Position numbers and translations under genes: made by a program. DNA of 64,000 nt from positions 1 through 64,000 of the forward strand of contig JALQPE010001686.1 of NCBI GenBank assembly GCA_030407315.1, written 5' to 3'. Under the pieces are notes generated by a model, which had not been told where the DNA came from, made no database searches, and saw nothing but the letters and a program-made list of their open reading frames with translations. Origin of the DNA: Asparagopsis taxiformis. Lineage: Eukaryota > Rhodophyta > Florideophyceae > Bonnemaisoniales > Bonnemaisoniaceae. This document shows, piece by piece, positions 1-31,582 of this stretch (positions are counted from its first letter, which is position 1; every line of letters starts with the position of its first letter).

Positions 1-1093
1 CAGCGCGGAGCATCTTCTCCACTTGCGTACGGCTAATCTCGCGCGGACGCGTGTCCGGCGCGGTACGGCGTTGGTTTCACGGGGGTCGCCCCCGGAACCA
101 GCTCGATGCGGTGCTCCGTCGCGTGAATGGCTCCCAGCGTGCCGCTCCACATGCGCTCATGCTTTCTTAGCATCTCGATAATTTCCGCGTGCAGGTTCGT
201 CGTCTACTCGCTCGTCGCGTAGCGTCGCGCGTAAGAGTTCTTCCCAAGGCGGCGTCGCGCTCGCAATTTCGTCGGTCTCGCGCGGGTCCGGCGGTGTCGT
301 AACGTTGCGTCGCGTCGCGTCGTCGGGCGGTCGGTCTTGCGGGTCCGGCGCTTCTGAGCGACTTGTAGACACCCCACGGGGTTGGGCACGGCGGTGCCTA
401 CCTTCATGCTTTTGGGTAAATACTTGTAGACGAGTGCCAGCGTTGTGTAACTGTACTCGGAAGGGTACATTCTTCGAACCATCGTCTCCCCGTTGGTTAA
501 ACGGAGTATTTCTGCGCGTAGAGGTTAGTCGCGGGAACTACGATGCAGCGCCCTTCAGCGCTCGTGGTAACGTCGATCGCTCGCGTCGCGTTCGGCGGAA
601 TCGATGTGCGGCGCGCAGCGCGATAGGCGCGAAGCTTGTGGGTCGGGTCGCCTTCGCGGTCGGCGCGCGGCGCGGTTCGTCGGCGTACGCGGAAGCATCG
701 GGACGTGGTCGCCATAGCGGGTTCGCAACGCGCGCTGCGGTCCAGTGTAGATAATTTCGACTACGCGGTCGATGAAGTCCGCTCCCAAGATACATGGGAC
801 GGATAAGCGTGGCATCACCAAAAAGATTTGGAGATGCGCTCGGGCACCTAGAAAAACGCTAAGTCGCAGCGACGCGTTGGCGCAAGGCGTCGTCCGTTCG
901 CGTCGATAATCGCGCAGCGCAGCGTCGGCGGCGTAGCGTGGCGCTTCCAGTCGGCGCCTAGTACGTTTTCGCGAATGAGGCTTGGGCCTGCGCCAGTATC
1001 AAGCACGGCGGTCACCGCGGTGGCCGTGCGTTGATTATACCCGACGCGGGTCTCGAGTTTGTAGTTCGCGGTAGGGGTCTGAAACAGGACCAC
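1..1093 (-). pseudogene. pol 5' part of element A (protease to start of RT), frameshifted
   Basis: Starting at about 1093 on the minus strand the sequence encodes an aspartic protease region with the motif LDTGAGPSLI, then ILGADFIDRVV further on in a shifted frame (821-555). Next comes the linker and the PYRAGHASREI region just before reverse transcriptase, which reaches the window edge. Each block matches element C pol (57057 onward) but in a different frame, so several small indels have accumulated. No full catalytic domain is left intact inside the window. Family knowledge: gypsy pol order is protease, RT, RNase H, integrase. Confidence 0.78.
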
Positions 1094-1185
1094 TGTTTCG
1101 GGGGTAACGGAGGCGGTTTTTCGCGCGGTAGTTGCGTCGTTGCCGCGTCGCGTATCCGTTGAGTGAGGAGGAGCCGGCCCACCCG

Positions 1186-3219
1186 CTACGGCTCCTCGTA
1201 GGCGTTTCCCGGGTCTTCTGCAAAACGAACCGAGTGGGGCGTGAGCTGCTCGCCGTCATGCGCGTCGTATTCGCGCGTCCGATCGTTTTCGCGCTCACGC
1301 TCGCGTGCGCCCTCGTTTTCGCGCGTTCGCTCGTTGCCGTCGACGCGCTGTCGCTCGCTCTCGTTCGCGTCGGCGTGCGCGGAGACTTCGAAGACCTGAA
1401 CGTTGCGCTGCAGGTTCAGTTCTTCGGGCGTTAGGCGCGCGTGGCTATGCATTTCGCGAATCGCGGCCTGCTGCTCGGACGAGAGCAGTGGGCAATTCAC
1501 CATCGGGTGCCCGAACTTCCTGCATATCAGGCATCGGAACGCCGCCGTGCGAGACGTCGGTGCCGTGCGTCTGCCTCACGATAGGCGGTGGGTAAGTCGC
1601 GCGCGGTATGTGCGCCGTGTACGGTCCCGCGCGTTCGCGTTCCCGGTCGTCGGTATGCGCGGTGCGTCGTGGGCGGTCGGCGGGCGAGGCGTCGCGCGAG
1701 CGTGGCGTGCGGTAATTCGACGAAGGAGTGCCAAGCGAGGTCGGACTTCGCATGGGGCTCGGAGTCGAGAACTTCCGTTCGCGCGGAGCGTGCGGTGTCG
1801 CGGCGGAGGTTGAGACGTTTGGCGATGAGAAATCTGATGGTGGGGTGTGCCCCACGGTCAGAGCTTGCATCGTTGGTGTCTCCTCCTCTTCCACGTAGAG
1901 CGCAGGCGTTCGCCTTAATAGCGGTCGAGCGCTCGTCGTCGGCGTCATCGCTCGGTGCGTGTCTCCGTGGCTCTGCGCCATAGAGACTAGCTCTCGAAAG
2001 GTGTATCGCCGCGGGTCACGAGACAGCGCGTCCCGCACGAGGTGTTGCGCGTAGGGGCGTAGACCATCGACGAAAATAGAAACAAGCGTTCGCTCGCTAA
2101 ACGCGTCGCCGCAGCGCAGCGCTCGTCGTCGTAATCGCGTAGCGAATTGCGTTTCGGTTTCCTTCGGGTCTTGCGTTTGTTGCGCCACGTCGCGGTACGC
2201 TTGCGCAACGTCGCCTTCGCGCGCGTAGGTTAGTAAGAGCCACTGAACGGCTTCCGCGTAGAACGTAATCGAATCGACGCCCGCGCGCGCTCCTCGGAAC
2301 GTTCGTCCCACGTACGTTTGGAACTTGTCGCGCGCTTCGTCGGCCAGGAAATACTTGAGAATCGGGAGCGCTGCGCCTTCGGATACGCCGGTGTCGTCGC
2401 ATGCGCTCTTGAAGTACTTCAGAAACGATAGTACCGCGATTCCGTCAGCGCCCGTGAAATTCTCTCCTTGCATCGAATGGCGCACCATTTCGCGGTGTTA
2501 GCCAATTCGCTCGCAATCGTTCGGTTAAACGCGCGGTCCGTATTACGCAAGCGGTACGTGCGATACGAAAGCGCGCGCGTGAACAGCTCGTTCAACGGCT
2601 GGATCTCTACCAGCCCGGGATGTGCGGGTCCATCGTCGCAATCCGAACGCGGATGGTCGTCGAATGACAGGTCCTGGCGCGCCAGTTCCAGCCATCCTTC
2701 GGGATCCGCGTTACGCGCGTAGTTCGTCGGAGTCGCGCGCGCTGCGGTTCGCGTTCGGTTTTCGCGCGTAACGACGCTCGCGCGGTCGGTATTGTGCTCC
2801 TCGCGGGAGTCCATCGTAGTGACGATTAGGTTGTGGACTTGCGCCCTCATCTGAGCCGTCAATCCACGTGATTGGCCCTTGATGGCGCGGTCCACAGCCG
2901 CTCGGACTTCTGCCTGGAGCATGCATTGGAACGTAGGGTCGTCCACTACTTGTCGAACCAAGCTCGGAAGCGTTGCGGACGGCGTAGCGTGCACGTCGGA
3001 AACGCGGAACTCGGCCTCGCGCTTCGTTGCGGCGCCATCGTCGGACGTTTGCGCGTCGTCATCAATGCTCGCGAGCGCTTGCGTCGGTAACGGCGGCCAA
3101 CGGGAAGCGGTAGGGTCAGGGATGTGTGAAGCGACCAGCGCGTCGACTGCGTGCGTTTGCGACGTGACTGGCGGCGGTTCGGTCGGTGCGTTCGATCGCT
3201 CGGGCGCGGATGGATCCAT
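1186..3219 (-). pseudogene. gag of element A, frameshifted
   Basis: The frame opening at 3219 starts MDPSAPERSNAPTEPPP, nearly the same as the gag of element C at 55040. It continues in that frame to about 2480, where a one-base change moves the match to another frame (2488-1445). A second shift near 1550 moves the C-terminal match to the frame ending at 1186. The second shift falls at the zinc knuckle seen in element C, which is therefore lost here. The capsid-like middle part is still recognisable. With at least two frameshifts this copy cannot make full-length Gag. The C-terminal tail is rich in Arg and Glu and ends at EEP followed by a stop. Confidence 0.8.
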
Positions 3220-3796
3220 CGGCGCGGTTGCGTTCGATCGTCGCCTAGGGAAAAGGGAAAAAGGGATGATGGGGAAGGAGAAAGGGGAATTCGACGCGCG
3301 TCAGAATCTCGCGTCGGCGCGTCGAAAAATTGGCAAGTAAAAAGGGAAGCGCTTCCCGAAAATTGTCTGCGTATCGGGCGCGCGTGTAAGGGTGAGGGGG
3401 ACGAGTTCGCTCGCAGGAGGGCTTCTTCCTCGCTCGGAACGCGCAAAGACGGGTCTCGATCGTCCGCGAACCCAATATTTTCGGCACCGCCGAACTCGCG
3501 TTAGGGTTGCGAACTAGCGCGCGCACGCGCTGCGTCTTCGATCGCGTCGTTCCGCGCTGCGAACCGTCGTAGTAGAGATAGGGTAGTTATGCAAACCAGA
3601 GAGGCTATAGCACCGCTTCCGGGATAGCGATACGCGCGCACGCGTCAATCGCCCTCGCTGTCGCGCACGACGAACGGATAAATGAGGAATTAGAGTAAGC
3701 GATAGGTTTTGGCGTCCTGTGTTTTCCCCAAGCGGAGTTTCTGTGCTTCGCTGAGTTCGCACGTCGGTTCGCGCAATTCTAGGTCGAGAGACCAGT

Positions 3797-4590
3797 TGTA
3801 GGACCAGCCGGGACGGCGGTCACTAGGAGAGTTCTAGAATCGCTTGCCGTGTCAGGGCGTAGTGAACCGGATCGCGCTGGTGAACTTGCGTTTCGCACGT
3901 CGCGCGGTCGCAGTGGCGATCGGGTGGTACAACCGCGGAACGCGCAGGGATCGATCGCAACACGGGATTCGCGGGCCGGCGCAAGCCGTGATCTCAGGGG
4001 GAGATCACCGAGTAAACTCGAGTACAACGCGATCCACACAGGGGTCGTAAATCCCTGGCCTAGTGGAGTGCAACGCAACGCGCGCTATCGCGGTGCGACG
4101 CGGTTCGACGATCGGTTTATGCGCAGCGCGCACGCGAACGTCGGCGATGTCGTGCAAGCAACCGCACGCATTGTCGTAATGCAATCGGTCCTCGCGACGC
4201 GCTGGACACTTCACTCGTAGCTGCGAAGATGCTGACTGTTTATTGGTAAGGTGCGAAGCTGAACGACCATTAATAGCTAACTACTAAAGGACAGGCTGTC
4301 ATTCCATGGCCGGCCGGCGTCCGCTCGCTTGCACGCAAAAGGGAAATATTTGGGAAAAAGACTTTCGTCATAAAAAACCCAAAAAGGGGAAATAAAGGGA
4401 ATTTCGCAAAAGGCGCTACACGTGGCGCCGGGCTCGCAATCGCACGCGTTCGCGCTGACGCGCCGTGACACGTAATTGTATCGCCACGCGTACGCTCGCT
4501 TACTAACTAACTCAGCGCGGATGCACGCGGACTCAACTCGTCGATATCGCTTCAACCCGCGTTCGCGTTAGTGGCATAAATTGCACCACA
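3797..4590 (-). repeat. 5' LTR of element A
   Basis: On the minus strand this 794-bp unit begins TGTGGTGCAATTTATG and ends GGTCCTACA, so it has TG...CA ends. It matches the LTRs at 26446-27235 and 53674-54462 but is more diverged from both than they are from each other. Inside the LTR boundary, after two bases, the sequence TGGTCTCTCGACC follows. It sits where a tRNA primer-binding site is expected and is the same in element C. The 5 bp beyond the outer edge (4591-4595, ccaag) should be the target-site duplication, repeated at the unseen other end. Confidence 0.85.
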
Positions 4591-5051
4591 CCAAGGCCGT
4601 CGTCTCCCTCGTCACCGTCACCCCATGCGACAGAAGAGCAGGAAGTGAAGGGCAGGCTCTCGCAAAGGACTTTCTTTCGAAAATGAGTCAGTATTGCCGG
4701 GTGTACGACGTCCCTTTCGAAGATTTGGTCAGTGCCGACGAGAGCCGAGAACACGTGCCCATCACGGGCAACGTTCAGCTCATTCTGACTGATCCGCCCT
4801 ACAATGTTCGTCGTAACAGGAACGATTCCAACTCTTCGTACGACAGGCTAACTGCAGAAGATATGCAGGCTAGCATCGAAGTGTTTGACGAGCTGTTGCG
4901 CCCCGGTGGCCACGGCATCGTGTTCTGCTCCGCTTTGCAGTTCTACGAATGGTTCCATTACTTGGAAACGTACAAAGGACCGCAGTCAGAAGGCCCAACC
5001 GATGCTGCTGCCAGTGATGACGGGTCGGATGAAGAAGAGGTTACGCCATGA
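4581..5051 (+). CDS. DNA N6-adenine methyltransferase, catalytic half (MTase-SET protein, 5' ORF)
   Basis: This frame carries the methyltransferase motif IV LILTDPPYNVRR (DPPY at 4791-4802), followed by a helix and the LLRPGGHGIVFCS strand typical of beta-class amino-methyltransferases. DPPY suggests the N6 of adenine as target; SPPY would suggest cytosine N4. The SAM-binding motif I is absent here and lies in the next ORF, as expected for the beta-class order. The formal first ATG (4581) lies inside the LTR of element A, so the true N terminus is cut off or displaced. The in-frame ATG at 4683 (MSQYCRVYDV) is a good alternative. The ORF ends in an acidic linker whose stop overlaps the next start codon as ATGA (5048-5051). 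Either this is a frameshift within one fused protein or two subunits are made. Confidence 0.75.
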   Translation: MHHTKAVVSLVTVTPCDRRAGSEGQALAKDFLSKMSQYCRVYDVPFEDLVSADESREHVPITGNVQLILTDPPYNVRRNRNDSNSSYDRLTAEDMQASIEVFDELLRPGGHGIVFCSALQFYEWFHYLETYKGPQSEGPTDAAASDDGSDEEEVTP

Positions 5052-6463
5052 ATTCGGACTCCGAAGCATCGCAGCGCAGTGGCGAAGAAAGTGCAGATGA
5101 GGATGAGGAGGAGGAGGACGTCGTTCGGAATTCAGTTTTCTTCGTTGACGAGGTACCTCTGTTGTTTGTCCGACTACCTGGGCACCTCTATCAAATGCCG
5201 GGGCGGAAGAGGTACCAACGCATGAACATGGCAGAGGTCGCTATCCACTTCTGGAAGCGAGGTGTTCCGTTCAAGACTGGAAGCGAGATGGTGGCCTATA
5301 GGAACCACGGATACATGGACGGCACGTACCCGGCGTGGTGCAACGTCACCATCAATATGCCCGCCATCGATTCGAATGAGATGGTGTGGCGAACAAGGAG
5401 CACAACCGGTGCTACGGTCAGAGTTCGTGCAGAGCAGAAGAGCGTCGCTCTCATGATGGAGTTGATCAGCCAGCATTCACAGCCTGGTGATATTGTTGTC
5501 GATCCATTCTCTGGCACTTTCGCAACGGGAAAAGCAGCTATGAGCTTGCCTGAGCACCGTGTTTTCGTCGGCAGTGACATGGACAAATTGTGTGTGGCAC
5601 GATCGCTTCCAAAGCTGTGTGCTCTCATGTCACGTGTAATTCTTTCAAACAACACTGACATGAGGGTCACGACAGAAGCGAAACAGAGTGCTGAGAAGTT
5701 CTTGGCGTCCCCCTCTGTCACGATGCGTACACAGAGGGAACGCAGGATCATCGAACCCCCACCTGGCCTTCCCCTGTACCAGAGGTTCCCGAAATATATT
5801 CGGCAGTACCTCTGGCAGCTGTGCCCAGAGTCGATTGCGTCGCACGAGCACATGGAAAAAACGGTACATTATTGGCCACCTTCCCTGCGCCGCTGGTTGC
5901 AAACTGAAAACCCTCGCGTGATGCGGGCACACGATTGTGTTGCGAAAAAATTGAGCGTTCGACCATCGCTGATTAAGCATCCAAATGCAGGAAGAGGGCT
6001 CTTCGCTGAACAGACATTTAATGTTGGCGACGAAGTATGTGCATACTACGGAACTGTTGTGTACTCTGATATGAGCAAGGAGTCGATGAGGTTCGCGTAC
6101 GGAGAGGGTCACATGGCGATAACGAAGGAAACATTCTTGATGTATGCCATCAAGCTGTATGCAACAGCGGAGGACGACGAAAACATCGAGCATCCAATTT
6201 GGGTTGTTCCGGCTCCGTTCTGTTCGGCGCAGTTCATCAACGACCCGCGGTATTTGCGAGGTGAGGACACTCCGGCGGAAGACACCAGGCGGATGGCCAA
6301 CGTCGAGTTTGTCGAGAACTACAGCAGCGGTTCGACGGGGAAGAAGCTCAAGGCGAAGGACCTAGAAAATCCGAAGATCATCGTAGTACGTGCAATCCGC
6401 GATATCCGTCCAGGGCAGGAGCTCTACGTTCATTATGGGACAGCGTTTAGAGCATGGAATTAG
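5048..6463 (+). CDS. SAM-binding half of DNA methyltransferase fused to a SET domain
   Basis: This 471-aa ORF starts with a run of acidic residues, then continues the methyltransferase. A target-recognition-like stretch is followed by the SAM-binding motif DPFSGTFATGKA (from 5501) and the acidic strand end VGSDMD. After a linker comes a SET domain: GRGLFA (near 5992), the strand with EVCAYYG, FINDPR, ANVEFV, and the closing ELYVHYG (6419-6439). SET domains methylate lysines, usually on histones; adenine methyltransferases modify DNA. The canonical NHS/C..PN signature is altered to FIND...ANVEF, as in some non-canonical SET proteins. AATAAA lies at 6495-6500, 32 nt past the stop. The gene sits inside transposon D1, so a role in silencing control or self-marking of the transposon is likely but inferred. 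Confidence 0.82.
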   Translation: MNSDSEASQRSGEESADEDEEEEDVVRNSVFFVDEVPLLFVRLPGHLYQMPGRKRYQRMNMAEVAIHFWKRGVPFKTGSEMVAYRNHGYMDGTYPAWCNVTINMPAIDSNEMVWRTRSTTGATVRVRAEQKSVALMMELISQHSQPGDIVVDPFSGTFATGKAAMSLPEHRVFVGSDMDKLCVARSLPKLCALMSRVILSNNTDMRVTTEAKQSAEKFLASPSVTMRTQRERRIIEPPPGLPLYQRFPKYIRQYLWQLCPESIASHEHMEKTVHYWPPSLRRWLQTENPRVMRAHDCVAKKLSVRPSLIKHPNAGRGLFAEQTFNVGDEVCAYYGTVVYSDMSKESMRFAYGEGHMAITKETFLMYAIKLYATAEDDENIEHPIWVVPAPFCSAQFINDPRYLRGEDTPAEDTRRMANVEFVENYSSGSTGKKLKAKDLENPKIIVVRAIRDIRPGQELYVHYGTAFRAWN

Positions 6464-6494
6464 GTTCACGAAAGATGTTTTCATTTCGACTACA

Positions 6495-6500
6495 AATAAA
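6495..6500 (+). promoter_or_regulatory. AATAAA polyadenylation signal of the MTase-SET gene
   Basis: A perfect AATAAA lies 32 nt downstream of the stop codon at 6461-6463. The position suits 3' end formation. Confidence 0.5.
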
Positions 6501-7124
6501 GCTACGTTCCAGAGTTGAAGTATATCATATAATGCAGCATGTCCAGCCACCATTAGTCCAGGGTGAAACCTATTGAGCAGTACTCGCCTGTCAAAAACCA
6601 ATCGTTCACACTCTAGGTGCACTTCGTCCGAGCAGTGAACCTGACTGCTTGGATGCTGTTATGCGTGCAGATGCAAAATACACGACCAAGTTGAAATGGA
6701 CGCCCGGTGGATGTCCAGCTCAGTTGCATTGCTGTCCAGCCCAGAAATTCTACAATTCAGGGCAGAAAAAAATATCGCAAAAAAACATCGATTTCAGCGG
6801 GTCGATTGTGCCGTACGGCACACCCCCATCTCAAAAACATGTTCACATGTGCATGTTTTTGAGAATAGCCCAAATTTTAATTCAAATCAGGACGTCTTCC
6901 GGACATAGGGGTGCTCGCGGCCTAGCTCGACAGCTGTAATTGTACCTCATTAAATACTGTTGATGACTGCCTACCGTATACAATCTGGACTGTTGGCGTA
7001 TTCTCCGGTACTTGACCTGACCTGAACGTTCATCGCAGACCGTTGTGGTTACCGACACTATACAGCAATCTTTTTTGTATCTCGTGCAACTCAATCGTTC
7101 CATCGCTTCGGGTAAAGCTTCATT
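6501..7124. other. Intergenic stretch of D1 with a hairpin
   Basis: No coding sequence is supported here. It holds a 12-bp perfect inverted repeat, CTCAAAAACATG at 6830-6841 and CATGTTTTTGAG at 6852-6863, separated by 10 nt that are themselves partly symmetric. The stretch presumably contains the promoter of the downstream coiled-coil gene, but no clear TATA box was found. Confidence 0.4.
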
Positions 7125-9410
7125 ATGCCGCCGCGTATTGCGAAGAAAGCTCCAAAGCCTCCGGGCCTCCAGAAAACCCGGTCAGCAGCTGCTGTATCGA
7201 GTGCCCGACAATCCCGTGCGAAGAAGCGGTCTGGGCCTACCGGCAGCATTGAACCGCGGTCCGGTAGTCGCAAGACGGACCGGCGCAGAACTGGGGATCC
7301 GCAGCGAGAAAGTGAGGAAGGAGGAACGGCGCGGAGAGAGATGGGGCTTGACCGAGGCAAGCGCGCTCGCAGGGACAGTGAACATCATGATGATGACATG
7401 ATAGTGGCTCAAAACATGTTGGAATTGCGGCAGAGTGCTATGGCAAAGGTAGTTCCTCCCGGGTTGGCAGATGCGGAGGTGCTGCAGACGGAGTCCCAGC
7501 CGGGGGTTCGCGAGACACTGGAGGCTGTGACCCCCACTGCGCCAACTATGCCGAGTACATCAGCCCCAGCAGGTAATGCAGTCAGGGACCCGAGGATAGC
7601 GGCAAGGGATGTTGTTTCTGAGCAACGTTCACAGGATGCCAACTATCATCGGCGGTCAGGTGGTACTGAGGGGAGAGAGCAGCCGGAGTGCGGGCCTCGT
7701 CACAACAGACTGTCATTGGTGCCAAATATGCGCGTAACGCCCCCGCGACGTCAGGCTATTGCCGATGGAGGACATCATATTCCCGATAGCGTGGGAGATG
7801 GGGGGACGGTGAGGGCAGAGAGGTTGCATCCGCCGGAATCCATCGATTTAATGGCGAGTCGCATCAATGCGCAGAAGAAGAAGATCGCGGAGCTGGAAAA
7901 AAAAGTGTTTAGCCAGGACATAGCAAACAAGGCGCTCACCACGGAGATAGTTGCGTTGGAGGCTAAGGTGAAGACTCTGCAGGCGGAAAATGCCAGCCTT
8001 ACTGCAATTGCGAGAACAGGTAGAATCAGTGATCACGGTGGCGGTAAGTCGAAAATACAGAAAGCCATTCCTGTGAAATACCTTGGAGTTCTTAGGGCGG
8101 TTGAGGAAAACCTGACAAAGTGGTGCAAGAACGAGACTATGGAGCTGGACCCTATAGCGGAACAAACGCAGAGACGTTGGACTGGACGTACCATCGAGGT
8201 AGAGCCGGTAGAAGGGACACTTTGGAGCGAAAACGGTGTAGGATATATTGCTACCCCTCCGGGCTATATCATCAAGAATCTGCAGTGGTATACACCTTCG
8301 TACAGAGACGAGAGTGATCTGCTGAATGACTTGGTGCGACACGTACTGCGTCAAAGTCCGTGGTGTGATGTGTTTTCCGATGAGGAGCAGCGTGTGTGCT
8401 GTCAAGAGGCTGTGGCGGGGAGCAAGGAATTGAAAGTGAAGGTGACGCAGAAACTGTCCGACGTGATGAGTGCACGGAAGCGTAATGCGAGGGACAGATT
8501 GTTCGGTTCGCTGGGGTACACGAAATTAATGTCTAGATGCACGATGCTGACGACGCGAGCTGAGATGGACGAGCGAGAGGATCAAAAGCGCGAAGCGTCT
8601 GAGAAGCTTTTGAAACGGGAAAGCAACGGTGATTTGGATATGGGGAGGTGGCGAACGGCACCGTTCTCAGAGCTGCGATACAGCAAAGGCATGGTTCCTG
8701 ACAGCTTCGAAATGGAAGTGAATGGTGATGCATGGTTTAACAACCGAGTAGCTGTGAATGTGCTGGACATCTTCAGGGGTTATTCGATACGACCAGAACA
8801 AGTAATGGACATAGAGACGAGCATACTAACGCTGGCGCGCCTGGATGCTTGGCTAGTGACTACTGTGGAGTGTTTGGATGAACCGAAGGGGAAAGGAGGT
8901 GCACGGCAGAAGGAGTTTACAAGGCGGTACAGTCAATATGTGGGGGTAGCTTTTCAGCAATTAGTTGGTATGGTGGTGTACTGCATGTCTTGTCTCCAAG
9001 GCTCGCAAGCAAGGGAAGAAACGGACGTTGTCGAGAGCGAACAGCGGACTAGTGCACAGTCACGGCATGTGTTTGCAAGCCGTACTGTGACGAGAGAGGC
9101 TGTTGAAGTGTGGCAAAGCGGAGAGGGGTCTGGAATTGTTCATGTCGTTGATGATGTAAACCGCTGCTCATCACTTGTTCTAGTGTCCGAGGATTGGATT
9201 CAATCGCATATTACGTCAAACCTCGGTGCTGTAATGGATTGTGTGATTGCGCAAGGACTAATTGGCGCAGAACTTTTCGTCGTTGACCCATATGCTGGAC
9301 ACCTGAGTGCAAACCTGAATGTAGAAATCAATGCCCCACAGTATGGGGGCATGGAGCGGCGCCATGCAGCAACTGCTGATAACAGTTTTGGCGCAATGGA
9401 GGATGGTTGA
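7125..9410 (+). CDS. Large basic coiled-coil protein of transposon D1, function unknown
   Basis: This intact 761-aa ORF has no family I recognise. The first 110 residues are basic and disordered with Lys/Arg clusters (AKKRSG, KRARRDSE), which could be nuclear targeting signals. A coiled coil runs from about residue 242 to 300 (INAQKKKIAELEKKV and following heptads). The C-terminal half looks globular, with many Trp, Tyr and Val residues. It stands between the MTase-SET gene and the convergent transposase gene and stops 77 nt from the transposase end. Two-gene DNA transposons often pair a transposase with a DNA-binding accessory protein, so an accessory role is a fair inference. Its intactness beside a disrupted transposase is notable. 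Confidence 0.7.
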   Translation: MPPRIAKKAPKPPGLQKTRSAAAVSSARQSRAKKRSGPTGSIEPRSGSRKTDRRRTGDPQRESEEGGTARREMGLDRGKRARRDSEHHDDDMIVAQNMLELRQSAMAKVVPPGLADAEVLQTESQPGVRETLEAVTPTAPTMPSTSAPAGNAVRDPRIAARDVVSEQRSQDANYHRRSGGTEGREQPECGPRHNRLSLVPNMRVTPPRRQAIADGGHHIPDSVGDGGTVRAERLHPPESIDLMASRINAQKKKIAELEKKVFSQDIANKALTTEIVALEAKVKTLQAENASLTAIARTGRISDHGGGKSKIQKAIPVKYLGVLRAVEENLTKWCKNETMELDPIAEQTQRRWTGRTIEVEPVEGTLWSENGVGYIATPPGYIIKNLQWYTPSYRDESDLLNDLVRHVLRQSPWCDVFSDEEQRVCCQEAVAGSKELKVKVTQKLSDVMSARKRNARDRLFGSLGYTKLMSRCTMLTTRAEMDEREDQKREASEKLLKRESNGDLDMGRWRTAPFSELRYSKGMVPDSFEMEVNGDAWFNNRVAVNVLDIFRGYSIRPEQVMDIETSILTLARLDAWLVTTVECLDEPKGKGGARQKEFTRRYSQYVGVAFQQLVGMVVYCMSCLQGSQAREETDVVESEQRTSAQSRHVFASRTVTREAVEVWQSGEGSGIVHVVDDVNRCSSLVLVSEDWIQSHITSNLGAVMDCVIAQGLIGAELFVVDPYAGHLSANLNVEINAPQYGGMERRHAATADNSFGAMEDG

Positions 9411-9487
9411 AATTAGTGCAGTAAATGTGACGTTGACTAGAAGGCTTATCATGTAGTACATTATCAATAGAGTGCTGCGATTTAGAT

Positions 9488-12400
9488 TTATTCTTCTTCA
9501 TTATCATCTGTGAACTGGTAATCAGTGTTGGTGTAGAAGCGGTTGAGATAGAAACGGTGGTCCGACCAGTGCATTTGTTTCGTAAATGGCTTGACTGGAA
9601 AGTTACTTCGTACGATGTGCACGGTGCCAGATATAGTAGATGCAGGAATGAGGTCAAACCAAGGACCACCTGCACTGTGGGATGCAGTGTCATTGCTGTC
9701 AACGGATCCGTTGTCCGGGTCCCATGTGGACCACTTTAAACAAATGCACCCAAGTGATTTTTCCACAGCGGTTTTTGGGGCAAAGCAGGTCATATACTGA
9801 ACGAAAGCGAGTTCTACAGGTTGAAACAGGTTTGGAGACTGCAGGCGTACCAGTGCCAGGACGCGCCCTACCCATATGGTTCTGTAGTCATCGGCAGTTC
9901 CGGAGATGACGACAAAGGAGTACTGCGATCTCTTTGCGGGGCCGAATGATGAAGTTGCAAAGACGCGCTGCTGCTTGTGCCTCGACACGTTTGTGGGGCG
10001 AAGCATGCCACTGTGCGGGTCAAAGTCGTCGGCATCTGGGACGTACCCTCCCATGACGTAGGCGGACTTTACCACGGTGACGGAAATGTCCATGTCATGT
10101 ATTGGAGGGCCTTCTGCCGTGGCGCGCAGTCTAGCGAGGGTGAGGAACGCTTGTGCAGCTGTGTCACCGAGTTGCTGGAATAGCGTTATGGTGCCAGACG
10201 GGAACGAGGAGTTGTGCAGAGGCAAAAGAGTGGCAGGATCGGGCTGTCCGTCGATATCTGCAACGAGGAGGGTTGCATCGGGCAGCAGGGAGGCAAAGTC
10301 GTGCAGTGCAACGGTGAATCCGTCGCGAACGAGTACTGCACCGTCTGTGGGCGATATCATGCGTGCGTTCCCCAATGTGTTCGATGGGGTATGACCAGTT
10401 GGAGTGGCCAAGGAGAATTCCATGTGGCGAATAGTCTCTTCTATGGCTGTGGAGCGCCTTCGAGAGGTTTTCCTATAACTCTGTTTGAACAGAAGATGGG
10501 AGTGTTCGTAGGGGCCTGCATCGATGTGTTCCAGGGCGCCATATCTCTGCAAGTCACCGGGAAGATGGTCTAGAAGATGGAACTTGAAAGTTTTGAGACC
10601 TGTGGTGTGGAATGGGCCGAGGGTGGAGAGCATTGATTGTTTGAAATAGGAAATGGATTTCTGGAGGCTTTCTAGTTCGGCGGTAGTTCAGTGCTTGATG
10701 CGACCGCGTTTCATGACCCATGCGACGAGGTCAGAGTATTGCGTGCAGATGGAAGTGAGGGAGGCTGTCTCTACTTCGTCACAGCATCTGTCAATGAATG
10801 CTGCGATGAAAGGGAACACCATGTCGACATGGTGATAGTCTTTGGCTGCGAGCATGCCGCGTATGCCGTCCTCCGTGAAGAGGCCGTTCAAATTGGTGCC
10901 CTTCTCACCCTTGGAGAAGTCGACATGAAGACCGGTGATGTAGTAGTCGCGTTCGATAGCGGACAGAATGCTGTTTGAGCCGGCGAGGATGGATTTTTTC
11001 ACCTTCTTGAAGGTGCGAGGTGTCCCGGAATGGGAGGCAGTGGTGGTGGTGAGGTCTGGGGAGCTGAGGCGGTGGACAATGCACTGTTTTATGAGCTTTG
11101 AGATGCCGAGGTGGAGATTGTGCAGAGGCTCGAAGGAGAAAATGTTGTACGGGTCTAGGGGACTGTTGGTGGGTAAAAGAGCGGTCGATTCGAGGACAGA
11201 GTGTTGTTCGAGGAGGGAGAGAGCTTCGAGCGGAGCAGTTGTATGCTCCTGAGCGCTCTCTTGGCGTGCAGAGCGTGTATCATCGAGGGAGCGGGGCTGG
11301 TGTGGCGCGCTAGATTCAAGTTGAGTGGCGGGGATGTAGCAGCGGTGGCAGGGATGTGTGGTGGTAGTGCTGTTGCGAGTGCATGACAGCTCTTTGGCCT
11401 CTGGAAAGTCGCAGCAATAATTGGCTAGGATGGGAAAGCATTGGCGGGCAGTTGCAGTGGAGTCTGTGCAGGGGAACCCGGAAGAGAACGCGGTGGATAG
11501 GGACGAAAACACTTTTTCGAGTGCTTTATGAATAATATCAATTTTGCGAGCGCGACTAGCAGAACTAGAGGTTTTCGGCATTTCATCACCGAACAAGGCG
11601 TTGGACGAAGGGTTAACAATGTACGGAAGATAACCGACGATGGTGAGGCCGGTACGGATGCAGTGGCGACGGAGGGGGGCGGAGAAGTTGAGCAGTGTGA
11701 CGTGTATGGGGTATGCGACGATTGCGGAGCTCTTGAGGCTTGTGTTGCTCTTGTGGAGTACACTTGGAGGAGGCCGGCAAAGGAGGAAGGGGTGGGATCA
11801 GTTTCCTCTGCCCATACGACCTGTGGATCTTCCGAGAGCTGCACGCGCTGTCTAGTAACCTGGTGCAGCGTTTTCGCGAATTCTGTGTGTAGGGGATGAG
11901 GAAATATTGCGGTGCCGTCTGGGGCGGTCTGTGGGGAGGGGTGGAAGAGAGTATTTTGGTCGTTAGCCAGTGCTAACTGCCTGCGGAGCATGTCGACTGG
12001 GTCGCGGAGGTACAGCTGTGCCGAGTACTTACCAGTTTTGTCTGGAATGATGTGGCTCTTGTAACCTTCGGTGCGGAAATGTGTTTCGACCATGGAAGCG
12101 GTAACGTGGCGACATTCTTCCACGGTGCGAACGGCGCTGTTGAACTTTTCTAGGGAGAATGCGGGGTCTTGTAGGATGGTGATGACTTCGCTCACGCGGC
12201 CAGCGCCGGCCTTCTACTCGAGGGTTGTGAGACTGGCGGCGAGGGATTGCACGAGGAGGTCTGCGCGGGAGGGGGTTGAGGTTGGTGGCAGTGGAGCGTC
12301 ACAGGGTGAGTCGCTGGAGGAAGCACGACCAGATTCTGGGTCTGGGGAGCTGGGTTGCGGGGAATCATGGTCGCTGTTTCGAGCAGGCTCATGGGTGACG

Positions 12401-12717
12401 GCAGGGACACGAGCGTTGTTGAAATGTTGGGGAGAGGGGTTGAAACGGTAGCGACACGTTCGCTCATGCAGCGCGAGCGCATAAGCATCTACGCAGTAGT
12501 AGAAGCATCCTTCATACTTGCATTCCATGTCGAGTTTTGACGCAAAAGGGAGGATTGCGAGCTGAACAGGGGAGACTGTGCCGTCCAGATGCGACCAATT
12601 TTTTTTGTGGTGCTTTCGAGACTTGGAATGTAACGTGTTCGTTCGTAGTTTTGTGGGTAGTAGTTTTGTGCTCACTCCAGCTGACATCCCAACGGTGGAA
12701 TTTAACCGAGAGTTCAA
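9488..12717 (-). pseudogene. Plavaka/tnp2-like transposase of D1, with two in-frame stops and a frameshift
   Basis: Reading right to left: an N-terminal C2H2-like finger (MECKYEGC...HERTC, with ATG near 12529), a Ser/Pro-rich linker, and an in-frame TAG at 12214-12216. The same frame then resumes. Near 11755-11780 the match moves to another frame (11596-10688), which carries NCDFPEA-type and CHRCYIP segments and FSFEPLHNLHLGISK. An in-frame TGA at 10688-10690 is followed at once by the C-terminal part with GLKTFKFHLLDHL and the SYRKTSRRR helix. This order (C2H2 finger, a D-x-PE element with a CxxC pair, LLHxLHxG-like, then KFHLLxH) is that of the Plavaka/tnp2 transposases related to CACTA. 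The same three lesions occur in D2 where it overlaps them. The protein cannot be made in one piece without recoding. Confidence 0.78.
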
Positions 12718-12978
12718 TCATTTCCAACTGTTACATCACATTGCGTGCTGGCAACGTGTGCATGGAAGGACGAACGACTGCCCTGGGACATGAATTTTCA
12801 ATTAATTCATTAGTAATAATAAACTTTTTTATTTCCGAACTTCGTGGAATCTGAATGTGCTTTACAGCGGATATGCCACGGATCATGTAAGGAAAGCAAA
12901 TGGATTCTCATATATATGATTATATGTTTATATTTGTTGTTCTCGATCCGGATCTCATTGTTCGGGGAATCAGAGACC
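12718..12978. promoter_or_regulatory. Divergent intergenic region between transposase and microexon gene in D1
   Basis: The transposase reads left from here and the microexon gene reads right. The region is AT-rich, with ATATATATGATTATATG around 12911-12927 upstream of the ATG at 12979, a plausible TATA region. The same stretch is in D2 (29502-29762). Confidence 0.4.
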
Positions 12979-14390
12979 ATGGCTTGGGCCATACTCAATC
13001 TCACTGCCGGCGATGATTTCGAGTATGCACAGCAAGACTTAAGCGGACGCAGAAAGCTGTCCGGTCGACGCCGCAGGCTCCACTCCGCCATCATCACCGA
13101 CTGATATTCTTTGACCGACTTTGCTTTGTACGTGCGCGAATCTTGATCAAGATTCGCGCACGTACCTTCGTTCCATCCTCTACACTAAACAAAGCAAAGG
13201 CGGTCAAAGGGAAGCGTGGAGTTTGAGTCTGACTATTTCCGTTTATGCGATATTTTTCCTTGGAAGCATGTTGACTCATGGTGTGTATTGAGCGGAGGAT
13301 GGAAGAAGGTACGTGAAGTTATGAACGTATGCTGCGAGGGAAGGTTGGTTTAGAGTCTGACTGTTGTGGTTGATTCCGATGTTTTGTAGATGATACAGGA
13401 ATGTTGATGACAGAAGGTAAGTTTCACTGAGCACCAAGACTTGTTTTGCGAAGATATGGACTGCTGACTTTGATTATTCATTGCAAGGTTTTTGGATCAT
13501 GGTTTGTATTGTGTGTAGGATGGATGAGAGGTACATTCGCGAGTTCTCAGGGTATGTAGCAAGGGAAACGTTGCTTTTGAATCTGACTGTTGCGATTGAT
13601 TCCGATGTTGCGTAGGTGATGGAGGAATAGTGATGACAGAAGGTAAGTCACATTGGGCGCCCAGACCGGTTGTGCGAAGATGCGGAATGCTGACTACTTT
13701 TCTTGGCTACACGATTACGTGACTTATGGTTTTTATTGTGTGCAGGATGGAACGGGTAAGGTAAGTGTGCGAGTTTTGAAAGTAAGCAGCGAGGGAATGT
13801 TGGTTTTGAGTCTGACTGTTGCTGTTGATCCAATATTCATTCATTGGAAGCCTATTGAGTCATGGTGTGTATTGTGTGGAGCGAAGGTAAGTGTGCGAGT
13901 TTTGAAAGTAAGCAGCGAGGGAAGGTTGGTTTTGAGTCTGACTGTTGTGGTTGATTCCGATATTGTGTAGGTGATGCAGGAATGTTGATGACAGAAGGTA
14001 AGTTTCACTGAGCACCAAGACTTGTTTTGCGAAGATATGGACTGCTGACTATGATTATTATTCATTGCAAGGTTTTTGGATCATGGTTTGTATTGTGTGT
14101 AGGATGGATGAGAGGTAAGTAAGGGAGTTTCTAGGATATCTGTCGTGGTAAGCGTTGCTGTTGAATCTGACTGTTGTGGTTGATTCTGATGTTTTGTATG
14201 TGATGCAGGAGTGGTGAAGCAGGAACGGCAGGACTCAAGGACAGTGAAGAAGGGATCTAGGAAGATGGGGAATGAAGCTGTGAGGTGTTTCTGGTATGTG
14301 TATATTTTCGGGCATACGATAGAAGTGAGAGTGGGTTTCAAGTGGTGTAAGATTTTGCTGACCATGTTCATGTTTGATGTCTTGATGATT
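12979..14390 (+). pseudogene. Microexon gene of D1, first exon broken by an inverted duplication
   Basis: This is the counterpart of the intact copy in D2 (29763-31022). The first exon begins MAWAILNLTAGDDFEYAQQ but meets TGA at 13102-13104. Its 3' part and splice donor have been replaced by an inverted duplication centred on 13146/13147. Downstream the array of short exon-like units remains, for example an 18-nt unit at 13399-13416 between an AG acceptor and GGTAAG. The first 12-nt unit has lost a base (11 nt). The final-exon region begins after TGATGCAG near 14209. A spliced product from this copy would not be in frame from the ATG. Confidence 0.55.
13110..13208. repeat. Inverted duplication with a 36-bp perfect palindrome in D1
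   Basis: The inner palindrome is 13129-13146 against 13147-13164 (arms TACGTGCGCGAATCTTGA). Outer arms at 13110-13128 and 13190-13208 match in inverted orientation. The right side carries an inverted copy of bases deleted from the left side, which are present in direct orientation in D2 (29894-29955). Confidence 0.85.
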
Positions 14391-14570
14391 TAATGGGCTG
14401 GGGTGGTGTCGAGGAAAGCGGGGATGGAATTGGGAAGGAGCGGATTTTTGTAATCTAGGTCGTGAGGGTTCTTGAAGTATGTGCGGATGGTGGTGCATGG
14501 CGTTCGGATGGTAGGGAGAACGCGATATTGAGGGAGATGGGTGATCGACGATATGCTGACAGGTATTTTG

Positions 14571-14714
14571 TATTCTGGCTGGATACGTATTTCGTATTCT
14601 GGCTGGATACATATTCCGTATTCTGGCTGGATACGTATTTCCTATTCTAACCGGGTATTTATTTCCTATTCTGACCAGATATGTATTCCCTATTCTAGAG
14701 CGACGTATTGTATA
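14571..14714. repeat. Six 24-bp subterminal tandem repeats of D1
   Basis: The units start at 14571, 14595, 14619, 14643, 14667 and 14691. The consensus is TATTCTGGCTGGATACGTAT followed by TTCS. The first three are almost the same; the last three are diverged. The same array is at 31333-31476 in D2. Subterminal repeats of this kind are transposase-binding sites in CACTA-type elements, so that role is inferred. Confidence 0.75.
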
Positions 14715-14820
14715 CGAGCAGTTTCCTAAATGAGAGAATAAAATACGGTCCGATATGGGCCCTGAATTTACCATCCGCTGTAATTTATTCCCTCCCGGTT
14801 TTCGCTGATATATTGTATAC

Positions 14821-14949
14821 TGGATGTCGGGTCCTAGTATTCCGCCATATGTATTAGAGAAAGTGGATGTCGGGTCCTAGTATTCCGCCATATGTACTAG
14901 AGAAAGTGGATGTCGGGCCCTAGTATTCCGCCATATGTACTAGAGAAAG
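14821..14949. repeat. Three 43-bp tandem repeats near the right end of D1
   Basis: The units start at 14821, 14864 and 14907 and carry TGGATGTCGGGTCCTAGTAT and TCCGCCATATGTACTAGAGA. A fourth partial unit starts at 14950. D2 has only two units (31583-31668), so copy number differs between the two transposon copies. Confidence 0.85.
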
Positions 14950-15081
14950 TGGACGTCCGCATCCAAAAAATTTTTATTTTTTTTGGACGCGGACGTTCAT
15001 TTGTTCTAGTAAATCTCGGGGCCGACTAGGACCCGTACTAGAGAGACTGGACGTCCGCGTCCACTTCCGAAAACACAGACG
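14950..15081. repeat. Right terminal region of D1 with GGACGTCC inverted motifs
   Basis: GGACGTCCGCATCC, an A/T-rich loop, and GGACGCGGACGTTC form a hairpin. A further GGACGTCCGCGTCC stands close to the end. CTAGGACCC inverts the GGGTCCTAG of the 43-bp repeats. Homology with D2 stops at 15081 and 31801, after which the flanks are unrelated, so this is the element terminus or within a base or two of it. Confidence 0.7.
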
Positions 15082-15133
15082 TAGTGAGTTATCCTCTTCC
15101 GGCTCAAACCGTATCATCAGTCTAACCAACCCG

Positions 15134-18100
15134 ATGACGGGAACCAAGGAGAAAGAGAATCCGCAATGGCGGGAGGATGTATCCTTGGAGCACCTTCAAC
15201 AACCACAGTTGAAGGAGAAAATTATAGCGATACTATCACAACATGAGTCCATGTGGGATGGGTCTCTTGGAGACATTAAAGCAACCGAGCATCGGATTGA
15301 TATAGGCAAAGGAAGTCGACCACGTCGACAGCAACCATACCGAATGGGACCCTTGAGAAGGGAGCTAGTAAGTAAGGAGATCATCTCCATGCTAGAAAAA
15401 GGATTCATCGAGCCTTCAAACTCTGAATGGGCTAGCCCAGTGGTCCTAGTACCCAAGAAGGATGGTAAATTACGCTTCTGCGTTGACTACCGACGTCTCA
15501 ACGACATCACCATCTCGGATGCTTATCCGTTACCGCGCATGGACGATTGCATAGACTCCTTAGGAGATGCACGCGTGTTCACCACGCTTGATTGCAACTC
15601 AGGCTATTGGCAAATTCCCGTTGCCTCCGAGGATCGGGATAAGACGGCCTTTACGTCGCACCTTGGAACATATCGATTTAAACGATTGCCCTTCGGGCTG
15701 AAGAATGCGCCCGCCACGTTCCAACGTGCTATCGATATTATCTTAAGCAGCGTACGCTGGCAAACTTGTCTCATCTATCTTGACGACGTCATCGTCTTCT
15801 CACGGAGTGAGGAAGAACACCTTCATCAGGTGGATCAGGTACTCACACTGTTGAGGAAGGCAGGGGTAACCCTAAAACTGGCCAAGTGCCACTTCTTCGA
15901 AGCGAAGGTAGATTACCTTGGACATGTGGTTATGCCAGGTAAGCTAGCGGTCGCCCAAACGGCAACGGACGCTATTGCGAAAGCAACTTTTCCGACCACA
16001 CCTACGCAAATGCGTTCTTTCCTCGGGAGCTGCGGGGTCTTCCGCCGTTTCGTGAAGGGGTACGCGGATATCTCCGACCCCCTCAACGCGATGTTGACTA
16101 AGGAAAACCTACCGAGTTTCGGTTCAATGCCTCCAACAGAGGAACAACGCCACGCGTTTGAACAACTCAAGGAATCCTTGGTGCAACCACCAATATTGGC
16201 TCTGCCAAGAGTGGGTAAACCCTACATCGTAGACACGGACGCTTCTGCGTATCAGATAGGGTGTGCGCTGTTGCAACAGCAGGATGACGACGACTATCGT
16301 CCTGTAGGATACTGGTCGCGGACCTTAACCAACCCCGAAAGGAGATATTCTCCGACAGAGCGCGAGTGTCTCGCTGTAGTATGGGCAGTCACTACCCTCA
16401 GACCATACCTTGAGCAAACAAAGTTTGTGGTACGATCCGATCATAACGCGTTGCGTTGGTTGATGAACATCACCGACCCATCCGGGCGCCTTTGCCGTTG
16501 GCGACTCCGCCTTTCAGAGTTTGACTACACCATAGTCTATCGCCCCGGTAGGGTTCACCAAGTACCAGACGCGTTATCGCGTGTTGAAACAGAAGGGTTA
16601 GACCCACATCCGGTGGATGACGAAATTCCCACACTCTTCGCGTATGATCTTACCCAGGAAATACCTGTTACAGAAGAGATGAACCCTTGGTTCTTTGATG
16701 TGCTCATCGCGCGGAATTACACTGACAAATCCCTAACGGGAATAAACCCAGCTGTCCTAACGACACACCCTCAGACAGAGGGTTTCGAACCGATAACACT
16801 CAACGAGTGGATTGAGGAGCAACGCTCTGATGACTTTTGTCAACAAGTATTGACAAGTCAGAAGTCGGACACTGTCTTCTTCGAAGATGACAAAGGTGTC
16901 TTGCGACGTAAATCCACCCTTTACAATTCCCACCAAGTGGTGGTACCAAGAACACTCAGGCCCCGCCTGTTGAAGATGTGTCATCACGACGTACTCGCGG
17001 GTCACCCCGGACAAAACCGTATTTATGAGACTAGGCGTCTCTCGTATTATTGGCCTGCCATGGCCGCGGATATAACCGCTACGGTTGAACGTTGTCAGGC
17101 TTGCGCCAAGAACCGCCTCAAGTTGCGTAGACACGCAAACACATTGAAACTATTCCCAGCTTCAGCACCGCTGGAAGAAGTCTCTATAGACTTATTAGGC
17201 CCGTTGCCTAAAACAAAGAAGGGTAACCTTCACCTTTTAGTAATTACCTGTCGCTTCACGAAGCTTACTCAGGTTGTACCATTACGCAGTATCACTGCTT
17301 ACCATGTGGCTGTTGCCTTTTGCACCCACTGGGTTTTCAAGTACGGTCCCCCTAGGACGTTGCTTTCCGATAATGGACCTCAGTTTGCTTCCAAACTTTT
17401 TCAGGCTGTTTGCCTGCAACTTGGAACAAAGAACTTGTTCACAACAACCTACCACCCTCAGACCAACGGTCAGGTAGAACGGTATAACCGTACGTTGTTG
17501 AACATGTTACGCAACTACGTAAATGAGAACCAGAATGACTGGGATGTATACGCACCAGCGTTGACTTACGCGTATAATACGCACGTGCATCGCACGACAG
17601 GGACGACACCCTTTGACCTTATCCTAAGTCGACCCCCACCACCTTACTCCCTTCATCACTCGACGAGATCACGGCAAAAACCGGACGCTTTCTTGAAACA
17701 GGATTTCCTGCAACGGATTGCTCACGCGATTGAGAAGTCTGGTCAACGGCTACAAGCCACGCAAGCGCGTTATAAACGGGACTTTGACCGAAGGATCCGG
17801 AAGACCAAACGACTCCTTCAGGAGGGTGACTACGTCTACCTTGACAACCCCGAAGTACGGGAACGAAACAAGTTGACGCCACTGGCGCAAGGACCTTTTA
17901 AGGTTGCTAAAGCCGGTAGGCGTACCGTCCATATTGAACGTGATGGACTTGTCGAACAAGTTAGCCACGACCGCGTGACGTATGCGCCACAACCTGAACA
18001 GGAAATACCGCACTTACGGTTAACTTCTAACGGAGCACCCGTACCTGCGGCAAGAACCGACGATCAAGCCGCCAACACGGTGCCGACTATGGCGGAAGAA

Positions 18101-29501: not shown

Positions 29502-29762
29502 TCATTTCCAACTGTTACATCACATTGCGTGCTGGCAACGTGTGCATGGAAGGACGAACGACTGCCCTGGGACATGAATTTTCAATTAATTCATTAGTAA
29601 TAATAAACTTTTTTATTTCCGAACTTCGTGGAATCTGAATGTGCTTTACAGCGGATATGCCACGGATCATGTAAGGAAAGCAAATGGATTCTCATATATA
29701 TGATTATATGTTTATATTTGTTGTTCTCGATCCGGATCTCATTGTTCGGGGAATCAGAGACC

Positions 29763-31476: not shown

Positions 31477-31582
31477 CGAGCAGTTTCCTAAATGAGAGAA
31501 TAAAATACGGTCCGATATGGGCCCTGAATTTACCATCCGCTGTAATTTATTCCCTCCCGGTTTTCGCTGATATATTGTATAC

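What the first reader, a model, noticed from the sequence alone, without database searches (positions are those of the whole stretch)
4581..6463. Transposon-encoded DNA adenine methyltransferase joined to a histone-type SET domain
The sequence shows a beta-class DNA methyltransferase (DPPY at 4791, FSGTFATG at 5501) followed by a SET domain (GRGLF, FINDPR, ELYVHYG) in one gene region inside a cut-and-paste transposon. Family knowledge: DPPY enzymes usually make N6-methyladenine in DNA, SET domains methylate protein lysines. A mobile element that could write both a DNA mark and a chromatin mark on its own insertion sites would be a striking way to escape or steer host silencing.
Basis: partly seen in the sequence, partly recalled or inferred. 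Interest (0 to 1): 0.92.

Follow-up and report, generated by a model that had tools for sequence, protein, structure and literature searches.

The report
Jumping gene with dual-methyltransferase fusion protein
A giant, very abundant jumping gene in a red-alga-like genome carries a single gene whose protein looks like a DNA-adenine methyltransferase joined to a histone-type (SET) methyltransferase, so the element may be able to mark its own DNA and its own chromatin; both activities are predicted, not tested.

Summary
The fusion is real. Window ORF 5033-6463 matches PF01555 and SET above Pfam's cut-offs. The window copy is broken: cut off at 4591 beside a retroelement and frameshifted near 5046. 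Elsewhere in this genome (phycobilisome genes, probably a red alga) 61 of the 89 listed copies keep a frame of 1,079 aa or more.

It lies in a 21.9-kb Plavaka transposon with TIRs; 7 of 11 end pairs show 2-bp TSDs. Exact-match sites: 1,252 left ends, 1,284 right ends, 935 MTase, 1,011 transposase.

57 homologues were found; 43 of 57 aligned rows keep four SET landmarks. A second gene joins a ParB-like motif to a dioxygenase-like domain.

Best reading: an element-encoded writer of adenine and lysine methylation acting on the element itself to keep it active. Activity and targeting are inferred; no structure model came back.

Precedents: ParB-MTase proteins in giant algal transposons (PMC12477816); SET or TET/JBP genes in other transposons (PMC12730594). 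I saw no MTase-SET fusion in print, but the key red-algal paper was not held. New variant of a known kind.

The parts
4591..15081 (+). Left-truncated copy of the giant Plavaka element (right ~10.5 kb of a 21.9-kb element)
   Evidence: blastn of the window against 10 other genomic copies starts at 4591 in 10 of 10; right homology ends at 15081-15083 in 8 of 10 (C535 ends earlier at its contig end, C1645 is rearranged)
4591..5051 (+). MTase N-terminal half with DPPY (4791); frame broken from the next part near 5046
5033..6463 (+). ORF of 476 aa: MTase C-terminal half (motif I at 5501) plus SET domain
   Evidence: PF01555 residues 62-185, PF00856 residues 320-469
5990..6439 (+). SET domain (GRGLF, YYGTVVY, FINDPR, ELYVHYG)
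   Evidence: landmark conservation
6681..6897 (+). ~217-bp intergenic module with palindromes and a GGATGTCC motif at 6709; 8 full or partial copies in element C2140, one of them upstream of the MTase-SET gene
7116..9410 (+). ORF of 764 aa, function unknown; only weak matches, all below Pfam cut-offs
9488..12717 (-). Plavaka transposase gene, in several frames here; one 1,036-aa frame in copy C2140
   Evidence: PF18759 E 3e-22 in window, 1.7e-24 in C2140
13222..14957 (+). Subterminal repeats (162/161-nt families, 24-nt and 43-nt tandem units)
15048..15081 (+). Right terminal inverted repeat
   Evidence: right terminus seen in the window and at 8 other places, left partner in L042
27236..31801 (+). 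Second fragment of the same element (transposase part and right end)
   Evidence: 96.3% blastn match over 4,482 columns; terminus at 31785-31801

Best explanation
The feature is an accessory gene of an abundant, recently active Plavaka-type DNA transposon. Its single protein has a family-specific N-terminal region, a beta-class amino-methyltransferase domain (most likely DNA N6-adenine) and a C-terminal SET lysine-methyltransferase domain. The most likely mechanism is self-marking. The protein, brought to the element's ends and intergenic regions (possibly through the GGAYGTCC motif or the ParB-like partner), methylates adenines there and lysines on the local nucleosomes. This gives the element a permissive chromatin state so that transposase and accessory genes stay expressed despite host silencing. 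The ParB/dioxygenase-like protein would be the partner that removes or modifies an opposing DNA mark. Shown by sequence: the fusion, the transposon, the copy numbers, the conserved active-site residues, the motif enrichment. Inferred: catalysis, the modified base, the lysine target, the targeting, the permissive outcome.
For: Both domains are above Pfam cut-offs in one frame. 61 of 89 listed genomic copies have a frame of at least 1,079 aa (counted by me; the tool scored the 89 best candidates). 10 of 10 homologues that I chose for scanning, of 57 found, match both PF01555 and SET at E<=0.1; 43 of 57 tree rows keep four SET landmarks. Profile matches in the PDB: DpnA 1.3e-15, CcrM 3.8e-10, KMT2C SET 3.7e-8, also EZH2 2.8e-5 and KMT5A 1.2e-4. 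TIRs, with 2-bp TSD in 7 of 11 pairs. The 4 paired elements of 20.0-22.5 kb, of 24 paired, carry the MTase, transposase and dioxygenase markers. GGAYGTCC occurs 21 times in element C2140 against 1.3 expected: 8 at the ends, 12 in intergenic modules, 1 inside a gene. 6mA is described as associated with permissive chromatin in eukaryotes (PMC12695648, title, abstract start and passages).
Against: No activity, expression or methylation data. The family has Asp for the usual His in the SET NH motif and an altered third position of the MTase glycine motif (both canons recalled). 14 of 57 rows miss at least one of four SET landmarks: a clade of seven (P0040-P0043, P0047, P0048, P0053), P0054, the SET-less P0055 and P0057, and P0004, P0025, P0036, P0044 (some may be truncated). 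The PDB SET matches include a repressive-mark enzyme (EZH2), so a permissive mark is a guess. Four of 11 end pairs show no TSD, among them two (C88, C164) of the four 20.0-22.5-kb elements. GGAYGTCC was picked after I saw it in the ends, and the modules are copies of one another, so its excess is partly duplication. The 10 copies compared were picked for long frames from the top protein hits, so pN/pS 0.33 is biased. No structure model was obtained.
Confidence: 0.45

Rival explanations
1. Only the DNA methyltransferase is catalytic; the SET half is a structural or binding module, for instance a nucleosome contact or oligomerisation domain.
For: NH-motif His replaced by Asp in 44 of 58 rows; 14 of 57 rows miss at least one SET landmark, and P0055 and P0057 have no SET region.
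Against: Asn 1009, Tyr 1074, Gly 928 and Gly 946 are retained in 43 of 57 rows across deep divergence; 0 nonsynonymous against 5 synonymous changes in SET among 10 copies (biased sample).
Confidence: 0.25
2. The marks regulate transposition itself rather than expression: adenine methylation at the ends controls transposase binding or limits excision to just after replication, as Dam does for IS10 (recalled).
For: 8 of 21 GGAYGTCC sites lie at element positions 26-285 and 21751-21851, close to both ends.
Against: 12 of 21 sites are in intergenic modules; does not explain a SET domain.
Confidence: 0.2
3. Self-silencing: the element writes repressive marks to limit damage to the host, keeping itself tolerated.
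For: EZH2-type SET chains also match the profile; 935 exact MTase sites are carried in a 141-Mb genome.
Against: KMT2C matches more strongly than EZH2; highly similar copies imply recent spread.
Confidence: 0.15
4. Passenger cargo: a captured fusion gene that does nothing for the element.
For: Paired elements of 10-12 kb (14 of 24) lack the MTase and transposase markers and still have both ends.
Against: Fusion conserved in divergent homologues; MTase marker present in 8 of 10 paired elements over 14 kb.
Confidence: 0.08

Closest known systems
[quoted passage not shown] its refs 50 and 51 not read)
   Same: ~1,100-aa transposon accessory protein with an N4C/N6A-type DNA methyltransferase in a ~21-kb algal DNA transposon; the authors also propose self-modification; 4 of 57 homologues here carry a ParB-like DGxHR motif fused to the MTase
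   Different: No SET domain is mentioned in the passages read; here MTase is fused to SET, and the ParB-like motif is on a separate dioxygenase-like gene; the transposase is Plavaka, not Sola1
SET-carrying transposons HarbingerS and MuDR of Phytophthora, and TET/JBP-carrying Plavaka and other DNA transposons of fungi (PMC12730594, abstract and passages)
   Same: DNA transposons that carry a chromatin- or DNA-mark enzyme; Plavaka transposase in some
   Different: 'adenine' does not occur in that paper's main text; no DNA-adenine MTase-SET fusion in the passages read; the dioxygenase here has no dioxygenase match in Pfam
Giant Plavaka repeats of Amoebidium (PMC11244446, section read) and 16-20-kb EnSpm elements with 4-5 ORFs in Chondrus crispus (PMC6431247, passage read)
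   Same: Large multi-gene elements; Plavaka or related CACTA transposase; the Amoebidium genes are intron-poor and hit red algae
   Different: No MTase-SET protein is described in the text read
Dam-like N6A methylases in DIRS retrotransposons and DNMTs in Symbiodinium retrotransposons (PMC5890265, passages); methyltransferases in virus-borne Mariner elements (PMC3627910, passages)
   Same: Mobile elements that bring their own DNA methyltransferase
   Different: Retrotransposons or Mariner, other enzyme classes, no SET fusion in the passages read

Membership tests
Beta-class N6_N4 DNA methyltransferase (PF01555) | Pfam gathering score | tested here: met
   42.6 bits in the window ORF, 57.2 in the C2140 protein, cut-off 26.7
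Beta-class N6_N4 DNA methyltransferase (PF01555) | Motif IV DPPY before motif I | tested here: met
   DPPY residues 524-527, DPFSGTFATG 763-772; of 58 rows D in 55, each P in 57, Y in 46 (F in 8)
Beta-class N6_N4 DNA methyltransferase (PF01555) | Canonical glycine pattern of motif I (recalled) | tested here: inconclusive
   G and T each in 57 of 58 rows, but the next position is mostly F (36) or C (9)
Beta-class N6_N4 DNA methyltransferase (PF01555) | Methylates adenine N6 in DNA | not testable with these tools
   Inferred from DPPY and best PDB matches DpnA and CcrM
SET domain (PF00856) | Pfam gathering score | tested here: met
   31.6 and 29.5 bits, cut-off 22.4
SET domain (PF00856) | GxG, YYG, Asn and catalytic Tyr landmarks (recalled) | tested here: met
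   All four scored positions in the query and in 43 of 57 rows; 14 of 57 miss at least one
SET domain (PF00856) | His of the NH motif (recalled as usual) | tested here: not met
   Asp in 44 of 58 rows, the query included
SET domain (PF00856) | Lysine methyltransferase activity | not testable with these tools
   none
Plavaka DNA transposon | Plavaka transposase (PF18759) | tested here: met
   79.7 and 87.1 bits, cut-off 26.3
Plavaka DNA transposon | TIRs and 2-3-bp TSDs | tested here: met
   34-bp TIR with 2 mismatches; 2-bp TSD in 7 of 11 end pairs, none in 4
Plavaka DNA transposon | Termini TGT..ACA or CATCA..TGATG of PlavakaA and PlavakaB (PMC12730594) | tested here: not met
   Termini are CGTCTGTGTT..AACACAGACG; those subgroups were described from fungi
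TET/JBP or other 2OG dioxygenase | Profile match | tested here: not met
   No dioxygenase family among Pfam matches of 9 members at E<=0.5 or in the PDB by profile; only the pattern HxD..H..R is invariant in 9 of 9 rows

The most novel reading that the evidence does not exclude
The element carries its own closed epigenetic circuit. One protein writes adenine methylation and a histone mark, and a ParB-like dioxygenase binds, spreads along the element and removes or oxidises a mark. Both would be aimed at the same GGAYGTCC-containing ends and intergenic modules, so that about a thousand copies define a chromatin state separate from the host's.
Probability: 0.18. Interest if true: 0.88.

Novelty: new variant of a known kind. 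Interest (0 to 1): 0.62.

Why it matters
The transposon-borne mark enzymes that I met in the literature handle one kind of mark each. A single protein able to write both a DNA and a histone mark, with 935 exact marker sites in one genome, would be a natural system for asking whether 6mA and histone marks can be coupled by one enzyme and whether a transposon can set its own chromatin state. It would also help explain how giant transposons come to occupy a sizeable part of an algal genome. It gives a clear direct test: map 6mA over intact copies.

Tried and rejected
Artefact or two neighbouring genes: rejected. Copy C2140 reads both domains in one open frame; the other 9 fetched copies have the same open frame from the same Met, though I had picked copies with long frames; P0001 (1,065 aa, 99% identical) has both Pfam domains.

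Viral or prokaryotic origin of the fusion: four IMG/VR scans gave only matches to the MTase part or nothing, and one GTDB scan gave three matches to the MTase part.

Same-contig link to Plavaka in other species: the 9 transposase homologues share no listed contig length with the 57 MTase homologues; not shown either way, and searches scored only the 8,000 candidates sharing most words. MTase-SET P0024 and ParB/dioxygenase P0061 share a contig length of 15,726, which suggests but does not prove linkage.

DNA search with the 64-nt terminus found nothing, although exact patterns of 20 and 21 bases then found 1,284 and 1,252 sites; I take the empty answer to come from the tool's stated skipping of very common words.

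Structure: the MTase-SET job was accepted and was still unfinished; the dioxygenase job was never accepted. No fold evidence is claimed.

Literature: ten answered searches. The Bostrychia paper (Petroll 2025) and Iyer 2014 are not held; Iyer 2011 and Kojima 2013 (Repbase Reports) I did not look up. I recall, unverified, that the Bostrychia paper reports genome growth through giant Plavaka transposons; it may already describe this gene.
Full report
What is in the window. ORF 5033-6463 (476 aa) carries the C-terminal half of an N6_N4 methyltransferase (PF01555 E 9.1e-11, 42.6 bits against a cut-off of 26.7) and a SET domain (PF00856 E 2.3e-7, 31.6 bits against 22.4) in one frame; the DPPY half is in another frame, 4572-5051, with a match below the cut-off. 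Comparison with other copies shows why: the window copy has a single-base frameshift near 5046, and homology to the element begins only at 4591 in 10 of 10 fetched copies, about codon 457 of the C2140 frame (my arithmetic). The sequence to the left (window 1-4609) is 89.5% identical, in reverse, to about 53,655-58,200 of the same window. I read both as Ty3/gypsy copies; the only profile support is a below-cut-off gag match. The window starts at base 1 of its contig, so the gene may be interrupted by that retroelement with the rest beyond the contig's edge. A second place, C1565, holds an almost identical stretch (99.6%).

Intact copies. The window's genome (141.5 Mb, 3,156 contigs) lists 89 matches to the ORF at 98-100% amino-acid identity; by my count 61 of 89 lie in a frame of at least 1,079 aa (the tool scored the 89 best of 3,185 candidates). 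In copy C2140 the 1,082-aa frame has PF01555 at residues 518-791 (57.2 bits) and SET at 926-1075 (29.5 bits). The 10 copies that I fetched, picked from that list mainly for long frames, are open from the same Met in 10 of 10. The genome has 13 phycobilisome-family matches, 11 of them on one contig (C469); of 14 control genomes only Synechococcus rings.

The element. Copy C2140 spans 21,883 bp from CGTCTGTGTTCTCGG to CCGAAAACACAGACG, with a 34-bp terminal inverted repeat of two mismatches (sequences). Of 11 left/right end pairs examined, 7 are flanked by the same two bases (TG, CA, TT, AA, CA, TA, TA), where chance would give about one in sixteen each; 4 pairs (C11, C112, C88, C164) are not. 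The transposase matches Plavaka (PF18759, 87.1 bits against 26.3). Exact counts in the genome, reversed-pattern controls all zero: right terminus 1,284, left terminus 1,252, MTase 21-mer 935, transposase 21-mer 1,011, dioxygenase 21-mer 829. From the listed places on contigs C4-C190 I paired 24 elements with both ends. The 14 of 10.0-12.0 kb carry none of the three markers. Of the 10 above 14 kb, 8 carry MTase and transposase and 2 transposase only; 4 of the 10, those of 20.0-22.5 kb, also carry the dioxygenase marker, 6 do not. Of those four, C52 has a TSD, C88 and C164 have none, and C138 was not examined. So the MTase-SET gene belongs to the large, presumably autonomous form, and a smaller form shares its ends. 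With roughly 900 copies of 10-20 kb the family could make up something like a tenth of the assembly; that is an estimate, not a measurement.

A second modification-like gene. On the opposite strand lies a gene that in 54 of 62 listed copies has a 1,403-aa open frame (the tool scored the 62 best of 3,887 candidates). C2140 and C1645 are frameshifted at different places. Its first part has a ParB/sulfiredoxin-like motif (VIDGLHR; motif name recalled). Its second part has invariant HND, HxxxxHAG and RYHxY in 9 of 9 aligned rows, as expected of a 2-oxoglutarate/iron dioxygenase. The search gave 8 homologues; 6 of the 8 also show the DGxHR motif, the shorter P0059 and P0065 do not. No dioxygenase family appeared in Pfam for any of 9 members (one weak DndB match, E 0.21) nor in the PDB, so the assignment rests on motifs. 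Four of 57 MTase homologues have a DGxHR motif fused directly to the MTase, which ties the two modules together.

Conservation of the fusion. The homologue search returned 57 proteins; 23 of 57 carry both Pfam domains in the precomputed table. I rescanned 10 of the 57, chosen among the better-aligned ones; 3 of these (P0012, P0014, P0020) lack the SET label in the table, yet 10 of 10 match both domains at E<=0.1, so the table undercounts. In a tree of 57 rows (query and 56 homologues; P0056 dropped for lack of most of the MTase part), 43 keep all four SET landmarks. The 14 others are a clade of seven (P0040-P0043, P0047, P0048, P0053), P0054, the SET-less pair P0055/P0057, and P0004, P0025, P0036, P0044. 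DPP and the GT of motif I are nearly invariant. As a profile, the family matches DpnA (1.3e-15), CcrM (3.8e-10) and RsrI (9.3e-9) among DNA adenine methylases, and KMT2C (3.7e-8), EZH2 (2.8e-5) and KMT5A (1.2e-4) among SET enzymes. Against full activity: the His of the SET NH motif is Asp in 44 of 58 rows including the query, and the MTase glycine motif is altered.

Selection and age. Ten copies differ by a median of 7 (range 1-30) of 3,198 nt, so the family spread recently. Over the whole gene there are 16 synonymous and 18 nonsynonymous changes (pN/pS 0.33; 3 multiple changes set aside); N-terminal part 8 and 13 (0.50), MTase 2 and 4 (0.56), SET 5 and 0. The copies came from the best protein hits, which biases this against nonsynonymous change; it is suggestive only.

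Cis signals. Modules of about 200 bp with palindromes (TGCCGTACGGCA; CTCAAAAACATG...CATGTTTTTGAG) lie between genes, 8 full or partial copies in C2140. The motif GGAYGTCC, on either strand, occurs 21 times in the C2140 element against 1.3 expected (maximum 5 of 200 first-order simulations) and 2 times in 48.9 kb of the window outside the element: 6 in the first 285 bp, 2 in the last ~130 bp, 12 in modules and 1 inside the ParB/dioxygenase gene. I chose the motif after seeing it at the ends, and the modules are copies of one another, so part of the excess is duplication. A shared site at ends and intergenic regions is what a self-targeting system would need, but which protein binds it, and whether the modules are promoters, is not known.

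How it most likely works. I favour self-marking for counter-silencing: the fusion writes adenine methylation and a lysine mark on the element's ends and control regions, and the ParB/dioxygenase protein removes or alters an opposing mark. 6mA goes with permissive chromatin in several eukaryotes (PMC12695648, title, abstract start and passages), and the best SET match is a KMT2-type enzyme, but EZH2 and KMT5A also match, so the sign of the mark is a guess. Rivals are a non-catalytic SET, control of transposition rather than expression, self-silencing, and passenger cargo.

What is known. Transposons with SET genes (HarbingerS, MuDR of Phytophthora) and with TET/JBP genes, including fungal Plavaka, are in print (PMC12730594, abstract and passages). 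[quoted passage not shown] Giant Plavaka repeats occur in Amoebidium (PMC11244446, section read) and 16-20-kb EnSpm elements with 4-5 ORFs in Chondrus (PMC6431247, passage). DIRS elements carry Dam-like methylases (PMC5890265, passages) and some virus-borne Mariner elements a methyltransferase (PMC3627910, passages). In ten library searches I saw no description of an adenine MTase-SET fusion, but of most listed papers I saw only the listing, and the red-algal paper cited for such genes was not held. I therefore call it a new variant of a known kind.

Limits. No structure model was returned, no expression or methylation data were available, other-species linkage to Plavaka was not shown, and the 10-12-kb class was read only through end flanks and one 1.2-kb sample (read).

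Noticed in passing
window 6681-6897 and matching modules in copies: ~200-bp intergenic modules with palindromes, several per element and in both orientations; possible promoters, terminators or protein-binding sites.
   Followed up: partly
window 27236-31801: A second fragment of the same Plavaka element with transposase remnants and a right terminus.
   Followed up: partly
window 1-4609 and about 53655-61287: Two related Ty3/gypsy-like copies in opposite orientation; the second copy's last long frame ends in what looks like a chromodomain (my reading; profile support only a below-cut-off gag match).
   Followed up: partly
window 14924-18853: Another retroelement polyprotein frame directly right of the transposon's end, with reverse transcriptase and integrase-like sequence (my reading, not scanned).
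   Followed up: no
window 36405-37739: 444-aa ORF that reads like a Harbinger-type transposase (my reading, not scanned).
   Followed up: no
G000:C107:42543-53667 and 13 other paired elements of 10-12 kb: A class of elements of rather uniform length sharing both termini but lacking all three marker sites; a 1.2-kb sample (L063) shares only the intergenic module with the large element.
   Followed up: partly
L037/L038 (G000:C1645): A rearranged copy in which the left half of a second element lies inverted next to the MTase-SET gene, with the left terminus next to a copia-like retroelement (my reading).
   Followed up: no
window 7116-9410: 764-aa ORF of the element with no family match above cut-off; position suggests a second transposition or DNA-binding protein.
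   Followed up: no
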